Assembly: GCF_027587195.1 (NCBI RefSeq)
Contig: NZ_JAPDDP010000039.1
Span: 1-64,000, forward strand
Length of the DNA: 64,000 nt
Reading direction: 5' to 3'
From: Solirubrobacter phytolaccae
Lineage (GTDB): Bacteria; Actinomycetota; Thermoleophilia; Solirubrobacterales; Solirubrobacteraceae
Shown piece after piece: positions 18,027 to 49,635 of the stretch. Numbering within the stretch: the stretch's first letter is position 1; the number at the start of each line of letters is the position of its first letter. A program made the position numbers and the translations under genes. The notes under the pieces were generated by a model. That model did no database searches, had not been told where the DNA came from, and worked only from the letters and a program-made list of their open reading frames with translations.

Positions 18027-18835
18027 GCTGGGCCGCCGTCATCGTCCTGTACCGCAGCCGGGCCGAGCTCGCCCGCCTGTTGCCGACCCTCCAGGCGCCG
18101 CAGCTGGTCGTCGTGGACGTCGGGCCCGATGACGGCGGCGCGCAGCTCGCGAGAGACCACGGCGCGACGGTGATCGAGCGCCGCGACAACCCCGGGTACG
18201 GCGCGGCGAACAACATCGGCATCACCCGCGTGACGCAGCCGGTTACCGTGCTGCTGAACCCGGACACGATCGACCACGCGGGCGTCCTGCCGGCCCTCGC
18301 GGACCGCGCCACACGCCCCGGCCTGCACGCCCCAAGGCTCCTGAACGAAGACGGCAGCGTGCAAAGAAGCGCGCACCCGGTCCCGGGCACGCTCGGCGCG
18401 TTCCTCCCCGCCGCCCTCCCGTGGCTCCCACGCCCGCTGAGAGACCGCGCGGAGCCGTACACAGCCGACACGCCGCGCACCGTCGGCTGGGCGATCGCCG
18501 CGTGCCTGGCCGCGCCGACGCACCTGATCCACTTCGACGAACGCATCCACCTGTTCGCCGAGGACATGGAGCTGTGCCTGAGAGCCCGCAACGAAGGCCT
18601 CAGGACCTACCTCCACACCGATCTGGCGCTCACCCACACGGGCGGTCACAGCATCGACACAGAGCCGTTCGCCCAGCTGGCCCACAATCGACGCACGGTG
18701 GTCGAGCGCACGCGAGGCACAACCGCGGCACGACTGGACGACGCCGCCCAGATCCTCACGTTCGCCCTCAGAACGTACAAAGGCCGCCGCGAGCGCAATC
18801 AGCTCGCGGCGGCCTTGAAACTACGGAACTGCTAG
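18023..18835 (+). CDS. GT2 family glycosyltransferase (rhamnosyltransferase-like)
   Basis: A 270-residue GT-A enzyme. VIVLYRSRAEL opens the nucleotide-binding fold; RRDNPGYGAANNIGI and VLLNPDT (the metal-binding DXD equivalent is NPD) follow near residues 54-85, and the catalytic-base region is FAEDMELCLRARNEG near residue 182. This set is typical of rhamnosyl- and related transferases. TTG 18023-18025 overlaps the previous stop as TTGA. Its last codons contain the hairpin that also serves as terminator of the convergent sigma gene. Confidence 0.82.
   Translation: MSWAAVIVLYRSRAELARLLPTLQAPQLVVVDVGPDDGGAQLARDHGATVIERRDNPGYGAANNIGITRVTQPVTVLLNPDTIDHAGVLPALADRATRPGLHAPRLLNEDGSVQRSAHPVPGTLGAFLPAALPWLPRPLRDRAEPYTADTPRTVGWAIAACLAAPTHLIHFDERIHLFAEDMELCLRARNEGLRTYLHTDLALTHTGGHSIDTEPFAQLAHNRRTVVERTRGTTAARLDDAAQILTFALRTYKGRRERNQLAAALKLRNC
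18780..18816 (-). terminator. terminator hairpin of the sigma gene, inside the convergent GT2 gene
   Basis: AAGGCCGCCGCGAGC (18780-18794), a 7-base loop and the perfect complement (18802-18816) form a 15-bp stem. On the minus strand it begins 22 bases after the sigma stop and is followed by TTTGTACGTT, a short T run. It lies wholly inside the last codons of the GT2 gene (KGRRERNQLAAALK), so protein and terminator share the sequence. Confidence 0.65.
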
Positions 18836-25047: not shown

Positions 25048-28000
25048 CTACCGCCCGCGCACCCGCACGCTCACGGTTCGCCGCACCCGCTCAGATCCAG
25101 CCGCCACCGTGACGGTCACCTTCACCGTCACCGCCCGACGGCCCAGCACGCGCAGCGCGCTCGCAGGCAGCCGCAGCGCCACAGAGCCCGTGCGACCCGC
25201 TGCGACGCGCGTGGAACCCGTCACCACCGCGCGGTACGTGCGCCCACCAACGCGCACGGACACCCGCGCCGGCCGCGTCACCGTGCACGCCGCGCTTCCG
25301 CACGTCACGGTCGCCACGCGCACCACACCGGTCCGGGACACGGTCTGCCGCGCCGCGCCCGCCTTCAGCGTCGGCCTGCGCACCGGCGCGACGGTCGGGA
25401 CGGGCGTCGGCGAGGGCGCGGGCACGACGACGGGCGGCGTCGGGGTGGGCGTGGCCTCAGGCGTCGGCGTCGGCGTCACCTCGGGCTCCTCCTCGGACGG
25501 CGGCTCGTCGCCCGCCTTCACCCACGAGGAGACGTTGACCACGGCCGGGTCGAGCACCGAGCCGGCCGCGTAGAAGCCCGCGAAGGCCGGGGCGCCCGGC
25601 TCGGTCAGCGTCGCGCCCATCGGGCCGAACACGGTCGACGGGCCCGAGAGGTCCGGCGCGAGCGCGCTGCCGTCCAGCACGGCGAAGCGGACGTTCGGGA
25701 AGTCCTCCATCGCGCCCGAGTTGAGCGACTTGCTCTTGACGTCGGCATACAGCGTCACCGCCGCTCCGTCCACGACCACCCGCGGGTTCGTCAACGTCAT
25801 GTCCAGCAGCGGCCCCATGCCCGAGTCGTGGCCGGTGAAGCGCACGGTGCCGCGCGCGCGGAACTCGCCCGTCCTGCGGGTGCGGTCGTACTCGCCGCCC
25901 GCGAGCGGGAAGCGGAACGTGCCGTCGGCGTTCTCGCTCGCGCCGTCGCTGTAGGCGATCGCGCCGTGGGCGATCGGCCCGCGGATGTACGAGCGGAACG
26001 ACGCCTTCAGGCCCCAGTCCAGCGCGCCAGCGGCGACGCGGAAGACGTCCGGCGGCGGGTCGGTGACGGTGAGCGTGAGCTCACGCGAGTAGGTCGTGTC
26101 GATGCTGTTGCGCAGCCGCGCGCGGAACCGCGCGCCCGACATCGCCGTGTTGGCGTCCTCGACCGTGAGGAAGCTGCCGGTCGCGCCCGGGATGTCCTCC
26201 CAGAAGCCGTCGTCGCGGCGCTGCCACTGGATGTCCGGGTACGGGTTGCCGGACGGGCCGACCTTGAACTGCGCGTCGAAGCCCTCCACCACGGTCACGT
26301 CAGCGGGCTCGACCAGCACCTTCGGCGCGGCGCGCACCTCGAGCGAGGCCGGCGCCGACGCGATCGACCCGCCCGCGTTGGTGAACACCGCGCGGTACTC
26401 GCGGCCGTTGTCGTCGAAGGTCACCGTCTGCGCCAGCGCGGCCGCCGTGGCGCCCGCGATGTCGCGCCAGGTGGCCGCGCTGCTGGTACGCGACTGCCAC
26501 TGCACGGTCGGCGCGGGGGCACCGATCGCGCCCGCCTGGAAGGTCACGCTCTTGGACGTCTCGCCCTTGAGCAGGGTCCGCGAAGCGCTCTCCGGCGGGG
26601 CGGTCACCGTCGGCGACGTCGCGACCAGCTTGTAGGCGAACAACTTCACGGGCGCGACGTTGTTGCGGAGGAACAGCGTCCCGCCGTACGCGCCGACCGC
26701 GTTCGCGAACAGCTCGGCCACACCCGTCGGCGCCTGCGTGAGCGCGCCCGCGAGCGCGCCGTCACGCAGGACGACGGTGCGCTTCGTGTTCAGCGCCGCA
26801 TAGATCAGCCCGTCCACGGGATCGACCGCCACGTCCAGCACCGTGCCGTTGAACGTGTGCTGCGTCGTCCCGACGAAGCCGGTCGCGGTCGTGTCCAGCG
26901 TCATCAGCGAGCCGGACGTCACGCCACCCTCGACGAGCGTCACGTTCGAGCCCGGCCCGGGCGTCGGCGACGCGTAGCCGAACGTGAACGAGCCCGCGGG
27001 CTTCGGCGGCACCGAGCCGGCGATCTCCACGACCGTCAGCTCGCTCCCGGTGTCGACCAGCTGCACCGCGGGGCTCGCGGAGATCGTCGCCGGGCTCGGC
27101 GTGCCGGTCACCGTGGCGTGCTGGGTCGCGACGATCCGCCCCTGCAGGCTCACCGCGAGGCCGCTCACGGCACGCCCGCCGGTCGCCAGCGCCGGGTAGT
27201 CCTTCACGCTCCAGCCCGCGCCGTCACGGGCGATCACCACCGCCGCCGGGGAGACCGGCACGGCGGTGTCGGTGAAGTTGCCGCTGGCGAGCCCCTGGAC
27301 GGCGTAGAGCTTGTCCGTCCGCGTGTCGTAGGCCAGGTGGTTCCGCGCCCACGAGCTCGTCCCGGGGATGGCCGCGAGGTCGTAGGTCTTCGTCTGCGTG
27401 TTCCACGTCGCCGTGCGGAGCGGCTGCCCGGCCGTGCCGGCCAGGAAGATCGTGCCGGTCTCCGAGTCGTACGCGTACGCCGTGACGCCGCTCAACGTCG
27501 TCGCGCCGAGCGGTTCGACCGTCGTCAGGTCGACCGCCGTCAGCGACGTCGTGTTGATCGCGTGCAGCAGGCCCCGCCCCGGCTCGGGGAAGTAGGTGTC
27601 CGCGTAGATGTCACGTCCGTCGGCGACCTGCGAGTACTTGGGCGTTCCGGCCGGGGTGAACGCGTCCACCGCCACTGGCTTCCCGCCCGGTCCGGTGTAC
27701 CGCAGCGTCAACGGATCGAGCGCCTGCCCCGGCTGGTAGAAGCCCGCGAAGGCCGGCGCGCCCGCGCCGGTCAGCACGGTCGGCACCGCCGACCACACGG
27801 TCGTCCCGGTCGGCGTGACCGCGGAGAGGTCCAGCTCGGCGAGCAGCACGTCGTCGAACACGACGAGGTCACCGCCGCTCAGCGGCTTGCTGGTCACGTC
27901 GGCCACCAGGGTTGACCCACCGGCCGCAAACTTCACCCGCGGGTCCTTGATCGTCAGGTCGAGCGAGCCGTCATGAGCGACGAACCGCACCCAGCCGCCG

Positions 28001-28263
28001 AGGGTGACGTCGGTCGTGTTCTCACCGGCGGTAAAGCTGCCCGACCGCAGCGGGAAGCGATACGTGCCGTCGGCGTTCTTGGTCGCGCCGTCGCCGACCG
28101 TGACCGTCCCGTGCCCGATCGAGCCCTCGACGTAGCTGCGGAAGGACGCCTTCACGCCCCAGTCGAGCGAGCCCGACGTGATCTGTTGGGCGAGCGCGGG
28201 CGATGCACTCGAAAGCAGGAGCGCCGCGACGAGCAGCACCATCCTCCGGACACGGTTCAACAT
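25048..28263 (-). CDS. large secreted protein with two HtaA domains
   Basis: The protein has about 1071 residues with a signal peptide ending near ASPALAQ. Two HtaA domains flank the molecule: SGSLDWGVKASFRSYVEG (from about residue 30) and AGALDWGLKASFRSYIRG (from about residue 745). Each ends with APAFAGFY. HtaA domains bind heme in corynebacteria. Between them are a propeller-like region and Ig-like repeats; then a Pro/Thr-rich linker (residues 930-975) and a Val/Arg-rich C-terminal beta domain. There is no LPxTG and no evident final membrane helix. GAAGG precedes the ATG. A perfect 32-base palindrome lies 26 bases upstream. Confidence 0.82.
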   Translation of the reverse strand: MLNRVRRMVLLVAALLLSSASPALAQQITSGSLDWGVKASFRSYVEGSIGHGTVTVGDGATKNADGTYRFPLRSGSFTAGENTTDVTLGGWVRFVAHDGSLDLTIKDPRVKFAAGGSTLVADVTSKPLSGGDLVVFDDVLLAELDLSAVTPTGTTVWSAVPTVLTGAGAPAFAGFYQPGQALDPLTLRYTGPGGKPVAVDAFTPAGTPKYSQVADGRDIYADTYFPEPGRGLLHAINTTSLTAVDLTTVEPLGATTLSGVTAYAYDSETGTIFLAGTAGQPLRTATWNTQTKTYDLAAIPGTSSWARNHLAYDTRTDKLYAVQGLASGNFTDTAVPVSPAAVVIARDGAGWSVKDYPALATGGRAVSGLAVSLQGRIVATQHATVTGTPSPATISASPAVQLVDTGSELTVVEIAGSVPPKPAGSFTFGYASPTPGPGSNVTLVEGGVTSGSLMTLDTTATGFVGTTQHTFNGTVLDVAVDPVDGLIYAALNTKRTVVLRDGALAGALTQAPTGVAELFANAVGAYGGTLFLRNNVAPVKLFAYKLVATSPTVTAPPESASRTLLKGETSKSVTFQAGAIGAPAPTVQWQSRTSSAATWRDIAGATAAALAQTVTFDDNGREYRAVFTNAGGSIASAPASLEVRAAPKVLVEPADVTVVEGFDAQFKVGPSGNPYPDIQWQRRDDGFWEDIPGATGSFLTVEDANTAMSGARFRARLRNSIDTTYSRELTLTVTDPPPDVFRVAAGALDWGLKASFRSYIRGPIAHGAIAYSDGASENADGTFRFPLAGGEYDRTRRTGEFRARGTVRFTGHDSGMGPLLDMTLTNPRVVVDGAAVTLYADVKSKSLNSGAMEDFPNVRFAVLDGSALAPDLSGPSTVFGPMGATLTEPGAPAFAGFYAAGSVLDPAVVNVSSWVKAGDEPPSEEEPEVTPTPTPEATPTPTPPVVVPAPSPTPVPTVAPVRRPTLKAGAARQTVSRTGVVRVATVTCGSAACTVTRPARVSVRVGGRTYRAVVTGSTRVAAGRTGSVALRLPASALRVLGRRAVTVKVTVTVAAGSERVRRTVSVRVRGR

Positions 28264-28289
28264 GGGCCTTCCTTGTCAAGGTCACTTCA

Positions 28290-28321
28290 CAGCACGTATT
28301 AGGGTACCCTAATACGTGCTG
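28290..28321. promoter_or_regulatory. perfect 32-base palindrome upstream of the HtaA gene
   Basis: CAGCACGTATTAGGGT (28290-28305) is followed directly by its exact complement (28306-28321). The left end lies 26 bases before the HtaA start codon and the palindrome includes the stop codon of the upstream GT4 gene. The core TTAGGGTACCCTAA recalls the TTAGG/CCTAA halves of DtxR/IdeR-type iron boxes, though the spacing differs. It may be an iron- or heme-responsive operator. Confidence 0.6.
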
Positions 28322-29271
28322 CGGACCACCGCGTCCACTCCACGTGCGGTGCGCTCCCAGCTGAACTGCCGGGCTCGACCCAGCCCCATGTTCCGTAGTC
28401 GCGCCCGCTCGGTCTCGTCCCCCACGAGGCCGAGCAGCGCGTGGCGAAGCGCCTCCGGATCGGGCTCGACCAGAAGCGCCGCGCCGCCGCTCGTCTCCGG
28501 GAGCGCGGTGACGTTCGTCGTCACCACCGGCGTCCCCGCGGCCATCGCCTCGAGCACGGGCAGGCCGAAGCCCTCGTAGACCGACGGCAGCACGAACGCG
28601 AGCGCGCCCGCGTACAGCGCCGGGAGCGCCTCGTCGGGCACGGGCCCGAGCAACGTGAGCGCGTCCAGCCCTTCCTCGGCGGCGAACTGCGGCCGGTGTC
28701 CGCCGGCGACGCGCAACTCCACCCCCTGGCGCGCCAACGCCTGCGCCGCCGGAACCAGCGCCCGCAGGTTCTTGCGCGCCGTGTGGGACGCCACGCACAG
28801 CACGTACGGCCGCTCGGCCTTCTCCCCCGGCGCGAAGCGCGGATCGACGCCGCCGTAGACCACGTGCGCCTCCACCCCGAGCAGCTCCCGCAGCTCGTCG
28901 CGGGAGAACTCGCTGACGGTGATCACCGCACGGGCACGGCGCGCGATCAGCGGCAGGATCCGGCGCTGGAACGCGGCGTAGGCGCCCGAGTACCAGCCGG
29001 GATGGCGCAGCGGCGCGGCGTCGTGGATCACGACGACGACGTTGCGCGCCGCGACCGGAGCGAGGTTCGCCGGGCACAGCAGCGCGGGCGCCCGCGCGCT
29101 CAGGACCGGCAGCACCGCCTGCTCCCATGCGTGGCCGGCGCGGTGCACCAGCGCCGGCGGCGGGCGGTGGATCGTGTACGGCAGCCGGGCGCACAGCTCA
29201 CGCGCCCAACGCTCCACCCCGCCGAGCTCAGGCCGCGCCGCGGCGCGCGCGTCGATCGCGGGCGGTCTCAC
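28309..29271 (-). CDS. GT4 family glycosyltransferase
   Basis: The protein has about 320 residues. ARPELGGVERWARELCARLP is the start of the GT-B fold; VVVVIHDAAPLRHPGWY, ITVSEFSRDELRE, VLCVASHTARKNL and the EX7E-type SVYEGFGLPVLEAMAAGTP (near residue 230) are typical of mannosyl/glucosyl GT4 enzymes. GTG 29269-29271 overlaps the lipoprotein stop as GTGA. Only 45 bases separate it from the HtaA gene downstream, so read-through is possible across the palindrome. Confidence 0.83.
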   Translation of the reverse strand: MRPPAIDARAAARPELGGVERWARELCARLPYTIHRPPPALVHRAGHAWEQAVLPVLSARAPALLCPANLAPVAARNVVVVIHDAAPLRHPGWYSGAYAAFQRRILPLIARRARAVITVSEFSRDELRELLGVEAHVVYGGVDPRFAPGEKAERPYVLCVASHTARKNLRALVPAAQALARQGVELRVAGGHRPQFAAEEGLDALTLLGPVPDEALPALYAGALAFVLPSVYEGFGLPVLEAMAAGTPVVTTNVTALPETSGGAALLVEPDPEALRHALLGLVGDETERARLRNMGLGRARQFSWERTARGVDAVVRSTY

Positions 29272-29573
29272 TCCTTCACGGAGAAGACGGCGAGCTCGCC
29301 CTTGATGTTCGTGACCGTGACCTTCAGCGGCCCGACGGTGCCGGACTCGCCCATCTTGAACGACTTGCGGTCGGACTCGGCCTCCAGCGTCACGCGGTCG
29401 TCCGCGGTCTCCACGACCTCGAGCGTCTCGCCGAACTCCCGCTCGAAGTCGAGCGTCGCGGGCCCGGACGTCTCGACCTCGCAGGTGCCGTCGTTGCACA
29501 CGAACTTGTACTGGCTCGCCGCGCAGCCGACCAAGGTCACGCAAAGAACCGCCATCACCATCAAACGCCGCAT
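29268..29573 (-). CDS. small lipoprotein
   Basis: A 101-residue protein with an N-terminal lipobox: MRRLMVMAVLCVTLVGCAAS, the Cys after LVG being the lipidation site. The mature part has two further Cys (FVCNDGTCEVE) that could form a small disulfide loop, followed by a beta-rich acidic domain. No known family is recognised. It is translationally coupled to the GT4 gene (GTGA). TACAGT (29586 to 29581) lies 7 bases before the ATG, so the mRNA is probably leaderless. Confidence 0.7.
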   Translation of the reverse strand: MRRLMVMAVLCVTLVGCAASQYKFVCNDGTCEVETSGPATLDFEREFGETLEVVETADDRVTLEAESDRKSFKMGESGTVGPLKVTVTNIKGELAVFSVKE

Positions 29574-29615
29574 CGCTCGCACTGTATTCCGGCGTGCGCT
29601 TTGATAGGCAGCCGC

Positions 29616-30227
29616 ATGAAGAGGCCAGTGCTTCGTCGCCGCCCGGGAGAGGCCGTCCGCCCCTCCGACATCGAGCTCCCCGACCCACCGTCCGGCGCCC
29701 GCGTGCTGCTGCGGGTCCTCACCCGCGAGGACCGGCCGGAGTTCCTCAAGCTCGCCCGTGAGAGCCACCGGCTGCACCGGCCGTGGACGTACCCGCCCGA
29801 GCGCGCCGACCAGTTCGACGAGCTCTACGGCCGCTCGCGCCGCGACGACTTCCTCTGCCTGCTCGCCTGCCGCACCGACTCGGGCGCGATGGCCGGCGTG
29901 TTCACGATCTCCCAGATCGTCCGCGGCGCCTTCCAGTCGGCCTACCTCGGCTACTACGCCCACGAGGCCCACGCCGGCCAGGGCCTCATGCGCGAGGCGC
30001 TCGAGCAGATCCTCGACCACTGCTTCGGCCCCCTCGGCCTGCACCGGGTGGAGGCAAACATCCAGCCGGGCAACGGCCCGTCGATCGCGCTGGCCCGCGG
30101 CGCCGGGTTCCGCCTGGAGGGCTTCTCGCCGCGCTACCTGCTGATCGGCGGCCAGTGGCGCGACCACGAGCGCTACGCGATCACCGCGGACGAGCACGCG
30201 GCGGCGAAGGCTTCTCAGGCGGCTTAG
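29616..30227 (+). CDS. GNAT N-acetyltransferase (RimJ/RimL type)
   Basis: A 203-residue protein. VLLRVLTREDRPEFLKLARE, LGYYAHEAHAGQGLMREAL (acetyl-CoA loop, near residue 115) and the late HRVEANIQPGNGPSIALARG with GFRLEGFSPRYL are typical of RimJ/RimL acetyltransferases, which modify N termini of ribosomal proteins or small amines. The true substrate is unknown. Its stop overlaps the stop of the uracil-DNA glycosylase gene by 3-4 bases. Confidence 0.83.
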   Translation: MKRPVLRRRPGEAVRPSDIELPDPPSGARVLLRVLTREDRPEFLKLARESHRLHRPWTYPPERADQFDELYGRSRRDDFLCLLACRTDSGAMAGVFTISQIVRGAFQSAYLGYYAHEAHAGQGLMREALEQILDHCFGPLGLHRVEANIQPGNGPSIALARGAGFRLEGFSPRYLLIGGQWRDHERYAITADEHAAAKASQAA

Positions 30228-49220: not shown

Positions 49221-49635
49221 CGACCGGACGGATCTCCGCCTTGGCCACGAAGTGCGTGGCCAAGGCGTCCCGTTCCGTGAAGCTCAGCACGTGGATCCAG
49301 ACGGTGAGCTGATCCCCGAACGTCCCGTGCAGCTCGATCGGCGCCGGCCCGGAGGCGTCGCGGTAGCCGTCCCACGACTCCTCCGCCGCGCGCCAGTCGA
49401 CCTCCCAGCCGCAGAGCACGCGCGGGTACAGGCCGAGCGTCTCCTCCTGCGGCGTGAGGTCGAGCCGGAAGAGCCCGGGAGCGAGCAGGATCGCCGCCCG
49501 CGCGCCGAACTCGACCAGCCGCGAGGCCGTGATCAGCAGCCCGCCGTCCGGAAGCTCGCACGCGAGCTGGCCGAGCGCGGCGCCTTCCGCTGCCGCCCGG
49601 TCGGGGCTCAGCAGCTCAGCCGGAGCGCGATCCAC
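49207..49635 (-). CDS. conserved-looking hypothetical protein downstream of prmA
   Basis: An open frame of about 142 residues starts with GTG 49633-49635 inside the end of prmA (28-base overlap). The sequence has a normal amino-acid mix (PDGGLLITASRLVEFGARAA, LYPRVLCGWEVDWRAAEESW) and no membrane helix or signal. No family is recognised. Translational coupling with prmA and TetR is likely. Its last 14 bases overlap the rhamnosidase stop region. Confidence 0.55.
   Translation of the reverse strand: MDRAPAELLSPDRAAAEGAALGQLACELPDGGLLITASRLVEFGARAAILLAPGLFRLDLTPQEETLGLYPRVLCGWEVDWRAAEESWDGYRDASGPAPIELHGTFGDQLTVWIHVLSFTERDALATHFVAKAEIRPVATAP

What the first reader, a model, noticed from the sequence alone, without database searches (positions are those of the whole stretch)
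28290..28321. Perfect 32-base palindrome before a heme-domain (HtaA) gene
All 16 base pairs match with no spacer, and the site lies 26 bases before the start of a large secreted protein with two HtaA domains. The core TTAGGGTACCCTAA has TTAGG and CCTAA halves as in DtxR/IdeR iron boxes, but with different spacing. It may be a new iron- or heme-dependent operator. The upstream glycosyltransferase stop codon is embedded in it.
Basis: partly seen in the sequence, partly recalled or inferred. Interest (0 to 1): 0.7.

Follow-up and report, generated by a model that had tools for sequence, protein, structure and literature searches.

The report
Iron-control DNA switch before heme genes
The palindrome contains one copy of a short iron-control switch that occurs at least 16 times in this soil bacterium (genus Solirubrobacter), almost always in front of iron- or heme-uptake genes, and it has the half-size form of the classical iron box, so this bacterial order may run its whole iron response on half-boxes.

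Summary
The 32-bp perfect palindrome is real. Its core TTAGGGTACCCTAA is one of 16 TTAGG-N4-CCTAA sites in this 7.7-Mb Solirubrobacter genome (reversed control: 0). Of TTAGG/CCTAA pairs 0-20 bp apart, 16 of 21 have spacing 4, none spacing 9. Fifteen of the 16 precede iron or heme genes, including all six HtaA genes; 33 of 44 HtaA genes of relatives have a box (<=1 mismatch; 0.1 expected). Here half-sites appear to be the whole regulon. The likely reader is a DtxR-family protein (contig C149) with a DtxR-like recognition helix but Glu in place of both sulfur metal ligands; its orthologues go with the sites across 64 genomes. The outer arms are not part of the shared box; a second site has equally long arms of different sequence, suggesting an added terminator hairpin. 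Binding and iron response are untested.

The parts
28299..28312 (.). TTAGGGTACCCTAA, single-dimer DtxR/IdeR-type half-site (TTAGG-N4-CCTAA): the putative iron operator
   Evidence: 16 genomic copies, 15 before iron/heme genes
28290..28298 (.). left outer arm CAGCACGTA of the 32-bp palindrome
   Evidence: not shared by other boxes
28313..28321 (.). right outer arm TACGTGCTG; with the left arm and core it can form a 14-bp RNA hairpin with loop GUAC (66-nt region -32.1 kcal/mol, z -4.7), possible terminator of the upstream gene
28301..28306 (-). TACCCT, a TANNNT -10-like element inside the box (inference; no sigma-70 consensus pair was detected)
   Evidence: sequence; one search found no consensus promoter
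28267..28274 (-). AAGGAAGG, likely ribosome-binding site
   Evidence: sequence
25048..28263 (-). secreted 1071-aa protein with two HtaA heme-binding domains and an Ig-like domain
27703..28176 (-). first HtaA domain (PF04213, 2.4e-49)
25537..26028 (-). second HtaA domain (PF04213, 6.7e-48)
28309..29688 (-). upstream glycosyltransferase (start codon uncertain; gene caller 29217); its stop codon lies in the palindrome

Best explanation
The core is a stand-alone half-site operator of a DtxR/IdeR-family metal-dependent repressor. When intracellular iron is sufficient, one metal-loaded repressor dimer binds TTAGGGTACCCTAA, which covers a TANNNT -10-like element a few tens of bases before the HtaA start codon, and blocks transcription; in iron starvation the dimer leaves and the secreted heme-binding protein is made together with the rest of the regulon. 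The repressor is most likely the C149 DtxR homologue (about 75%). Shown here by computation: recurrence, fixed 4-bp spacing, position before iron genes, absence of the second dimer's repeats, conservation across the order, co-occurrence with the C149 orthologue. Inferred: binding, repression, iron as effector, occlusion of the -10. The outer arms, private to this site, most likely let the same palindrome act as a U-tract-less hairpin terminator of the glycosyltransferase gene (about 50%).
For: 16 exact TTAGG-N4-CCTAA in the genome against 0 for the reversed pattern; 16 of 21 TTAGG/CCTAA pairs within 0-20 bp have spacing 4, none 9 (binomial p about 1e-17). Fifteen of 16 sites lie before iron/heme genes by Pfam, including all six HtaA genes holding the eight domains. 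In relatives 20 of 44 HtaA genes/operons have an exact and 33 of 44 a <=1-mismatch box, expected 0.01 and 0.11 from shuffles. The C149 protein is the paralogue closest to DtxR/IdeR by sequence, with Ser37/Pro39/Thr40 of the recognition helix conserved in nearly all of about 30 orthologues. Genomes with an orthologue (>=60% identity): n=33, mean 6.4 boxes; without: n=31, mean 0.58 (p=2.6e-10); the C98/C66 type does not track the boxes (with it but without the C149 type, mean 0.40). IdeR of Saccharopolyspora binds TTAGG-N4-CCTAA as one dimer at about 78 nM (PMC8464063).
Against: No binding or expression data. The regulator's primary metal site has Glu at both sulfur-ligand positions (Met10, Cys102), as in Mn-type sensors (with PMC10317159). 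Recognition-helix Gln43 is Glu. Patulibacter minatonensis keeps an orthologue (61%) and uptake genes but has no exact box, only 1-2-mismatch variants. No box was found near the regulator gene itself. The co-occurrence is partly phylogenetic, as the regulator is order-wide, and most of the 64 genomes were picked for being box-rich or box-poor.
Confidence: 0.85

Rival explanations
1. The box is read by another regulator, for instance one of the two Mn-type DtxR paralogues (C98, or C66 beside a Mn/Zn-type ABC transporter), a Fur protein, or an unknown repressor; the regulon is the same but the reader differs.
For: C98 and C66 are also DtxR-family proteins and their closest solved relative is the 5zr4 metal-dependent regulator; no binding test exists.
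Against: C98-type proteins are common in genomes without boxes and their recognition helix lacks the Ser-x-Pro-Thr of DtxR/IdeR. The box is exactly the DtxR single-dimer unit and does not resemble a Fur box. Presence of Fur was not searched.
Confidence: 0.15
2. A heme-responsive operator (HrrA/ChrA type) dedicated to heme-protein genes.
For: All six HtaA genes and a HugZ-like gene carry the box.
Against: The same box precedes siderophore-interacting proteins, EfeO/FTR1, FecCD and ferritin genes, which are not heme-specific; half-sites are of DtxR type.
Confidence: 0.04
3. The palindrome is only a transcription terminator hairpin of the glycosyltransferase gene; the iron-gene context is incidental.
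For: It can form a strong hairpin (z -4.7), the upstream stop codon lies in it, and U-tract-less hairpins at or just after stop codons occur elsewhere in the window (18780-18816, 49237-49267); such I-shaped terminators are described for mycobacteria (PMC12288462).
Against: The core recurs 15 times elsewhere, mostly between divergent genes without outer arms, so a terminator cannot explain it. It may be an additional function.
Confidence: 0.03

Closest known systems
DtxR/IdeR 19-bp iron box (TTAGGTTAGSCTAACCTAA) of Corynebacterium, Mycobacterium, Streptomyces
   Same: Same TTAGG/CCTAA repeats, same class of target genes (iron uptake, storage, heme), DtxR-family protein as the likely reader
   Different: Only two of the four repeats; the repeats for the second dimer at offset 5 bp are missing at all 75 boxes examined; the genome has no spacing-9 pair
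IdeR half-site TTAGG-N4-CCTAA of Saccharopolyspora erythraea (nuo promoter; PMC8464063)
   Same: Identical 14-bp consensus; room for one dimer
   Different: There a variant beside full boxes; here it is the standard form at 16 sites and across the order, with G/C favoured at the inner positions (RTTAGGGNNCCCTAAY)
Corynebacterial HtaA/ChtA-HmuTUV heme uptake under DtxR control
   Same: HtaA-domain heme-binding proteins, Peripla_BP_2/FecCD transporter genes, iron-box control
   Different: Long secreted proteins with two HtaA domains and Ig-like spacers; half-site boxes; HtaA genes scattered over six loci
MntR (manganese-sensing DtxR family)
   Same: Glu at the position of Cys102 and an acidic residue at Met10 in the C149 protein
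   Different: DtxR-like recognition helix and iron-gene targets; closest solved relatives by sequence are DtxR/IdeR

Membership tests
Full 19-bp DtxR/IdeR box | Four CCTAA-type repeats (two interleaved dimers, offset 5 bp) | tested here: not met
   No second unit at offset 5 in 16 own and 59 relatives' boxes; no spacing-9 pairs
IdeR single-dimer half-site (14-bp) | TTAGG-N4-CCTAA | tested here: met
   28299-28312 and 15 further sites; consensus from PMC8464063
IdeR single-dimer half-site (14-bp) | Placed before iron-homeostasis genes | tested here: met
   15 of 16 sites; 33 of 44 HtaA genes of relatives at <=1 mismatch
IdeR single-dimer half-site (14-bp) | Bound by a metal-activated DtxR-family dimer | not testable with these tools
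   Needs gel shift, footprint or ChIP
IdeR/DtxR protein (C149 homologue) | Fe_dep_repress and Fe_dep_repr_C domains | tested here: met
   (PF01325 2.4e-10, PF02742 6.3e-30)
IdeR/DtxR protein (C149 homologue) | Recognition-helix Ser37, Pro39, Thr40, Gln43 | tested here: inconclusive
   Ser, Pro, Thr kept; Gln43 is Glu. Q43A IdeR still binds normally (PMC8464063)
IdeR/DtxR protein (C149 homologue) | Sulfur metal ligands Met10 and Cys102 | tested here: not met
   Both are Glu in the own protein; Glu102 kept in the orthologues aligned
Intrinsic terminator | Stable hairpin right after a stop codon | tested here: met
   (z -4.7); stop codon 28309-28311 within the palindrome
Intrinsic terminator | U-tract after the hairpin (canonical form) | tested here: not met
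   Minus strand continues TGAAGTGACCTT; only an I-shaped terminator is possible
Fur box | TGATAATNATTATCA-like sequence | tested here: not met
   Sequence comparison by eye; Fur proteins were not searched

The most novel reading that the evidence does not exclude
In the whole order Solirubrobacterales the iron regulon runs on stand-alone single-dimer half-sites, read by a DtxR-family protein that joins an IdeR-type recognition helix to an Mn-type (Glu/Glu) metal site, with tandem half-sites at 14, 17 or 20 bp instead of the interleaved 5-bp arrangement; at some genes the operator is also built into the terminator hairpin of the preceding gene.
Probability: 0.3. Interest if true: 0.72.

Novelty: new variant of a known kind. 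Interest (0 to 1): 0.58.

Why it matters
The 2023 review of IdeR mechanism (PMC10317159) states that it remains to be investigated whether half-sites exist in other species and what IdeR does there. This order appears to use half-sites for its entire iron response, including cultured, sequenced genera (Solirubrobacter, Conexibacter), so the question becomes directly testable. It also gives a predicted iron/heme regulon for a deep actinobacterial lineage common in soil, and a natural case of an IdeR-type reading head with a manganese-type metal site.

Tried and rejected
Heme-specific operator: rejected because non-heme iron genes carry the box. The 32-bp palindrome as the unit of recognition: rejected, such outer arms are absent at 14 of 16 sites. 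A two-dimer 19-bp box: rejected by the spacing and offset tests. Sequence-specific role for the outer arms: unlikely, the other 32-bp palindrome (C125) has different arm letters. General rule 'boxes after a codirectional gene have symmetric flanks': not supported on average, only window, C125 and partly C44 and one relative (L182). G230, a genome with neither C149 orthologue nor more than one box, looked like a natural knockout, but it has also lost SIP, FecCD and HtaA genes, so it only shows joint loss. No Rfam family matched the region; no consensus sigma-70 promoter. The 1-mismatch sites before FG-GAP, aconitase and PucR genes (C66, C92, C103:39410) may be chance and are not counted. Literature search for the 14-bp consensus found only PMC8464063, and none on iron regulation in Solirubrobacter.

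Full report
Observation. The palindrome is exactly as described: CAGCACGTATTAGGGTACCCTAATACGTGCTG, 28290-28321, 26 bases before the ATG (28263, minus strand) of a 1071-aa secreted protein with two HtaA domains. The TAG of the upstream glycosyltransferase, also on the minus strand, lies inside it.

What recurs. The genome (7.74 Mb, 169 contigs; window = C102; its closest named relatives by the DtxR protein are Solirubrobacter species) has seven exact TTAGGGNNCCCTAA and 16 exact TTAGGNNNNCCTAA sites, with none for the reversed control. When all TTAGG/CCTAA pairs with 0-20 bases between them are listed, 16 of 21 have exactly 4, the others are scattered (6, 8, 11, 11, 19), and none has 9, the spacing of the outer repeats of the classical box (p about 1e-17). 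The sites share RTTAGG-N4-CCTAAY, with G and C favoured next to the repeats.

Targets. Genes next to each site were called with a codon model and named with Pfam. The 16 sites precede: HtaA proteins (C33, C85, C102, C109, C169, and through an operon C103; together all six HtaA genes with the eight domains found genome-wide), siderophore-interacting proteins (C87, C125), Peripla_BP_2 and FecCD transporter genes (C44, C103, C110 twice), EfeO-like imelysin plus FTR1 (C103), a HugZ-like PNPOx-DUF2470 gene (C103), a ferritin-like gene (C150), a Transglut_core2-FhuF operon (C97), and one Transglut_core2 gene of unknown link to iron (C167). A one-mismatch site precedes a third siderophore-interacting protein (C35). 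Some sites serve two divergent genes.

Relatives. In a class-wide draw of 299 genomes the strict motif occurs in 59, concentrated in the same family and order. In the 64 genomes examined more closely, 44 HtaA genes of relatives were checked: 20 have an exact and 33 a box with at most one mismatch before the gene or its operon, against 0.01 and 0.11 expected from shuffled upstream sequence. Many relatives carry two boxes side by side, at offsets such as 14, 17, 20 or 34, never 5.

Comparison with known boxes. [quoted passage not shown] The present core is one such unit. Marcos-Torres et al. showed that Saccharopolyspora IdeR binds the half-site as a single dimer with similar affinity and proposed TTAGGNNNNCCTAA as the consensus; the 2023 review (PMC10317159) left open whether half-sites occur in other species and what they do. 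In this order they appear to be the standard operator.

The likely reader. The genome has three DtxR-family proteins. Two (C98, C66) are closest to the 5zr4 regulator and have helices of the type TPASVSAM; C66 sits beside a Mn/Zn-type ABC transporter (by inspection). The third, C149, is closest to DtxR/IdeR and has SAPTVHEM, keeping Ser37, Pro39 and Thr40; this is nearly invariant in its orthologues. Orthologues (>=60%) and boxes go together: 33 genomes with, mean 6.4 boxes; 31 without, mean 0.58. The C98 type is present in many genomes without boxes. The metal site of C149 has Glu where IdeR has Met10 and Cys102, as in Mn sensors (PMC10317159), so the identity of the sensed metal is open although the targets are iron genes.

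The outer arms. Beyond the core, the window site continues for nine more perfect pairs. One other site, C125 before a siderophore-interacting protein, also has nine (GCACCGGGG...CCCCGGTGC), giving another 32-bp palindrome with different letters; two such among 16 sites are not chance (p about 6e-8, or 7e-6 without the two inner pairs). Both lie between codirectional genes at or just after a stop codon, and both fold into strong hairpins (z -4.7 and -5.2); a third (C44) has an imperfect one. No U-tract follows. Perfect U-tract-less hairpins also occur at other stop codons in this window, and such terminators are described in mycobacteria, though disputed (PMC12288462). The arms therefore probably serve RNA structure, most simply termination of the preceding gene, not the repressor.

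Mechanism. Metal-loaded repressor dimer on the core, over the TANNNT -10-like TACCCT, blocks transcription; release in iron starvation. Recurrence, placement, spacing and conservation are shown; binding, repression, effector and promoter position are inferred.

Verdict. An iron operator of the DtxR/IdeR kind in a stand-alone half-site form. New variant of a known kind; interest moderate to high because it bears, from sequence, on a stated open question and makes it testable in cultured species.

Noticed in passing
L038:3236-3267 (G000:C125:166235-166266): A second 32-bp perfect palindrome, GCACCGGGGTTAGGGTACCCTAACCCCGGTGC, with the same core and different arms, overlapping the predicted GTG start of a siderophore-interacting protein gene.
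   Followed up: partly
L151:4804-4837; L155:3484-3517; L168:3782-3809; L067:1487-1514; L071:1501-1531: Relatives carry pairs of half-site boxes side by side at offsets of 14, 17 or 20 bp, never the classical 5 bp.
   Followed up: partly
L051:3498-4205: DtxR-family regulator with an IdeR-like recognition helix but Glu at both Met10 and Cys102 positions of the primary metal site.
   Followed up: partly
window 18780-18816 and 49237-49267: Long perfect GC-rich hairpins at or just after stop codons without a T-run, as expected for I-shaped terminators.
   Followed up: partly
L141-L144, L190, L273, L276, L287 (Patulibacter): In Patulibacter the regulator is kept, with a second diverged copy, but boxes before iron genes have drifted (for example AAAGGGGATCCTAA).
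   Followed up: partly
L036:3127-3140: A box 206 bp before a ferritin-like gene; ferritin genes are often iron-activated rather than repressed, so the box may act differently there.
   Followed up: no
L045:3962-5285 and L037:3396-3881: Transglut_core2 genes follow the box twice, once in an operon with an FhuF-type protein; a link of this family to iron is not obvious.
   Followed up: no
L205, L210, L219: Assemblies titled Bifidobacterium breve hold contigs with a clear Solirubrobacterales DtxR gene, so these metagenome assemblies look mislabelled.
   Followed up: no
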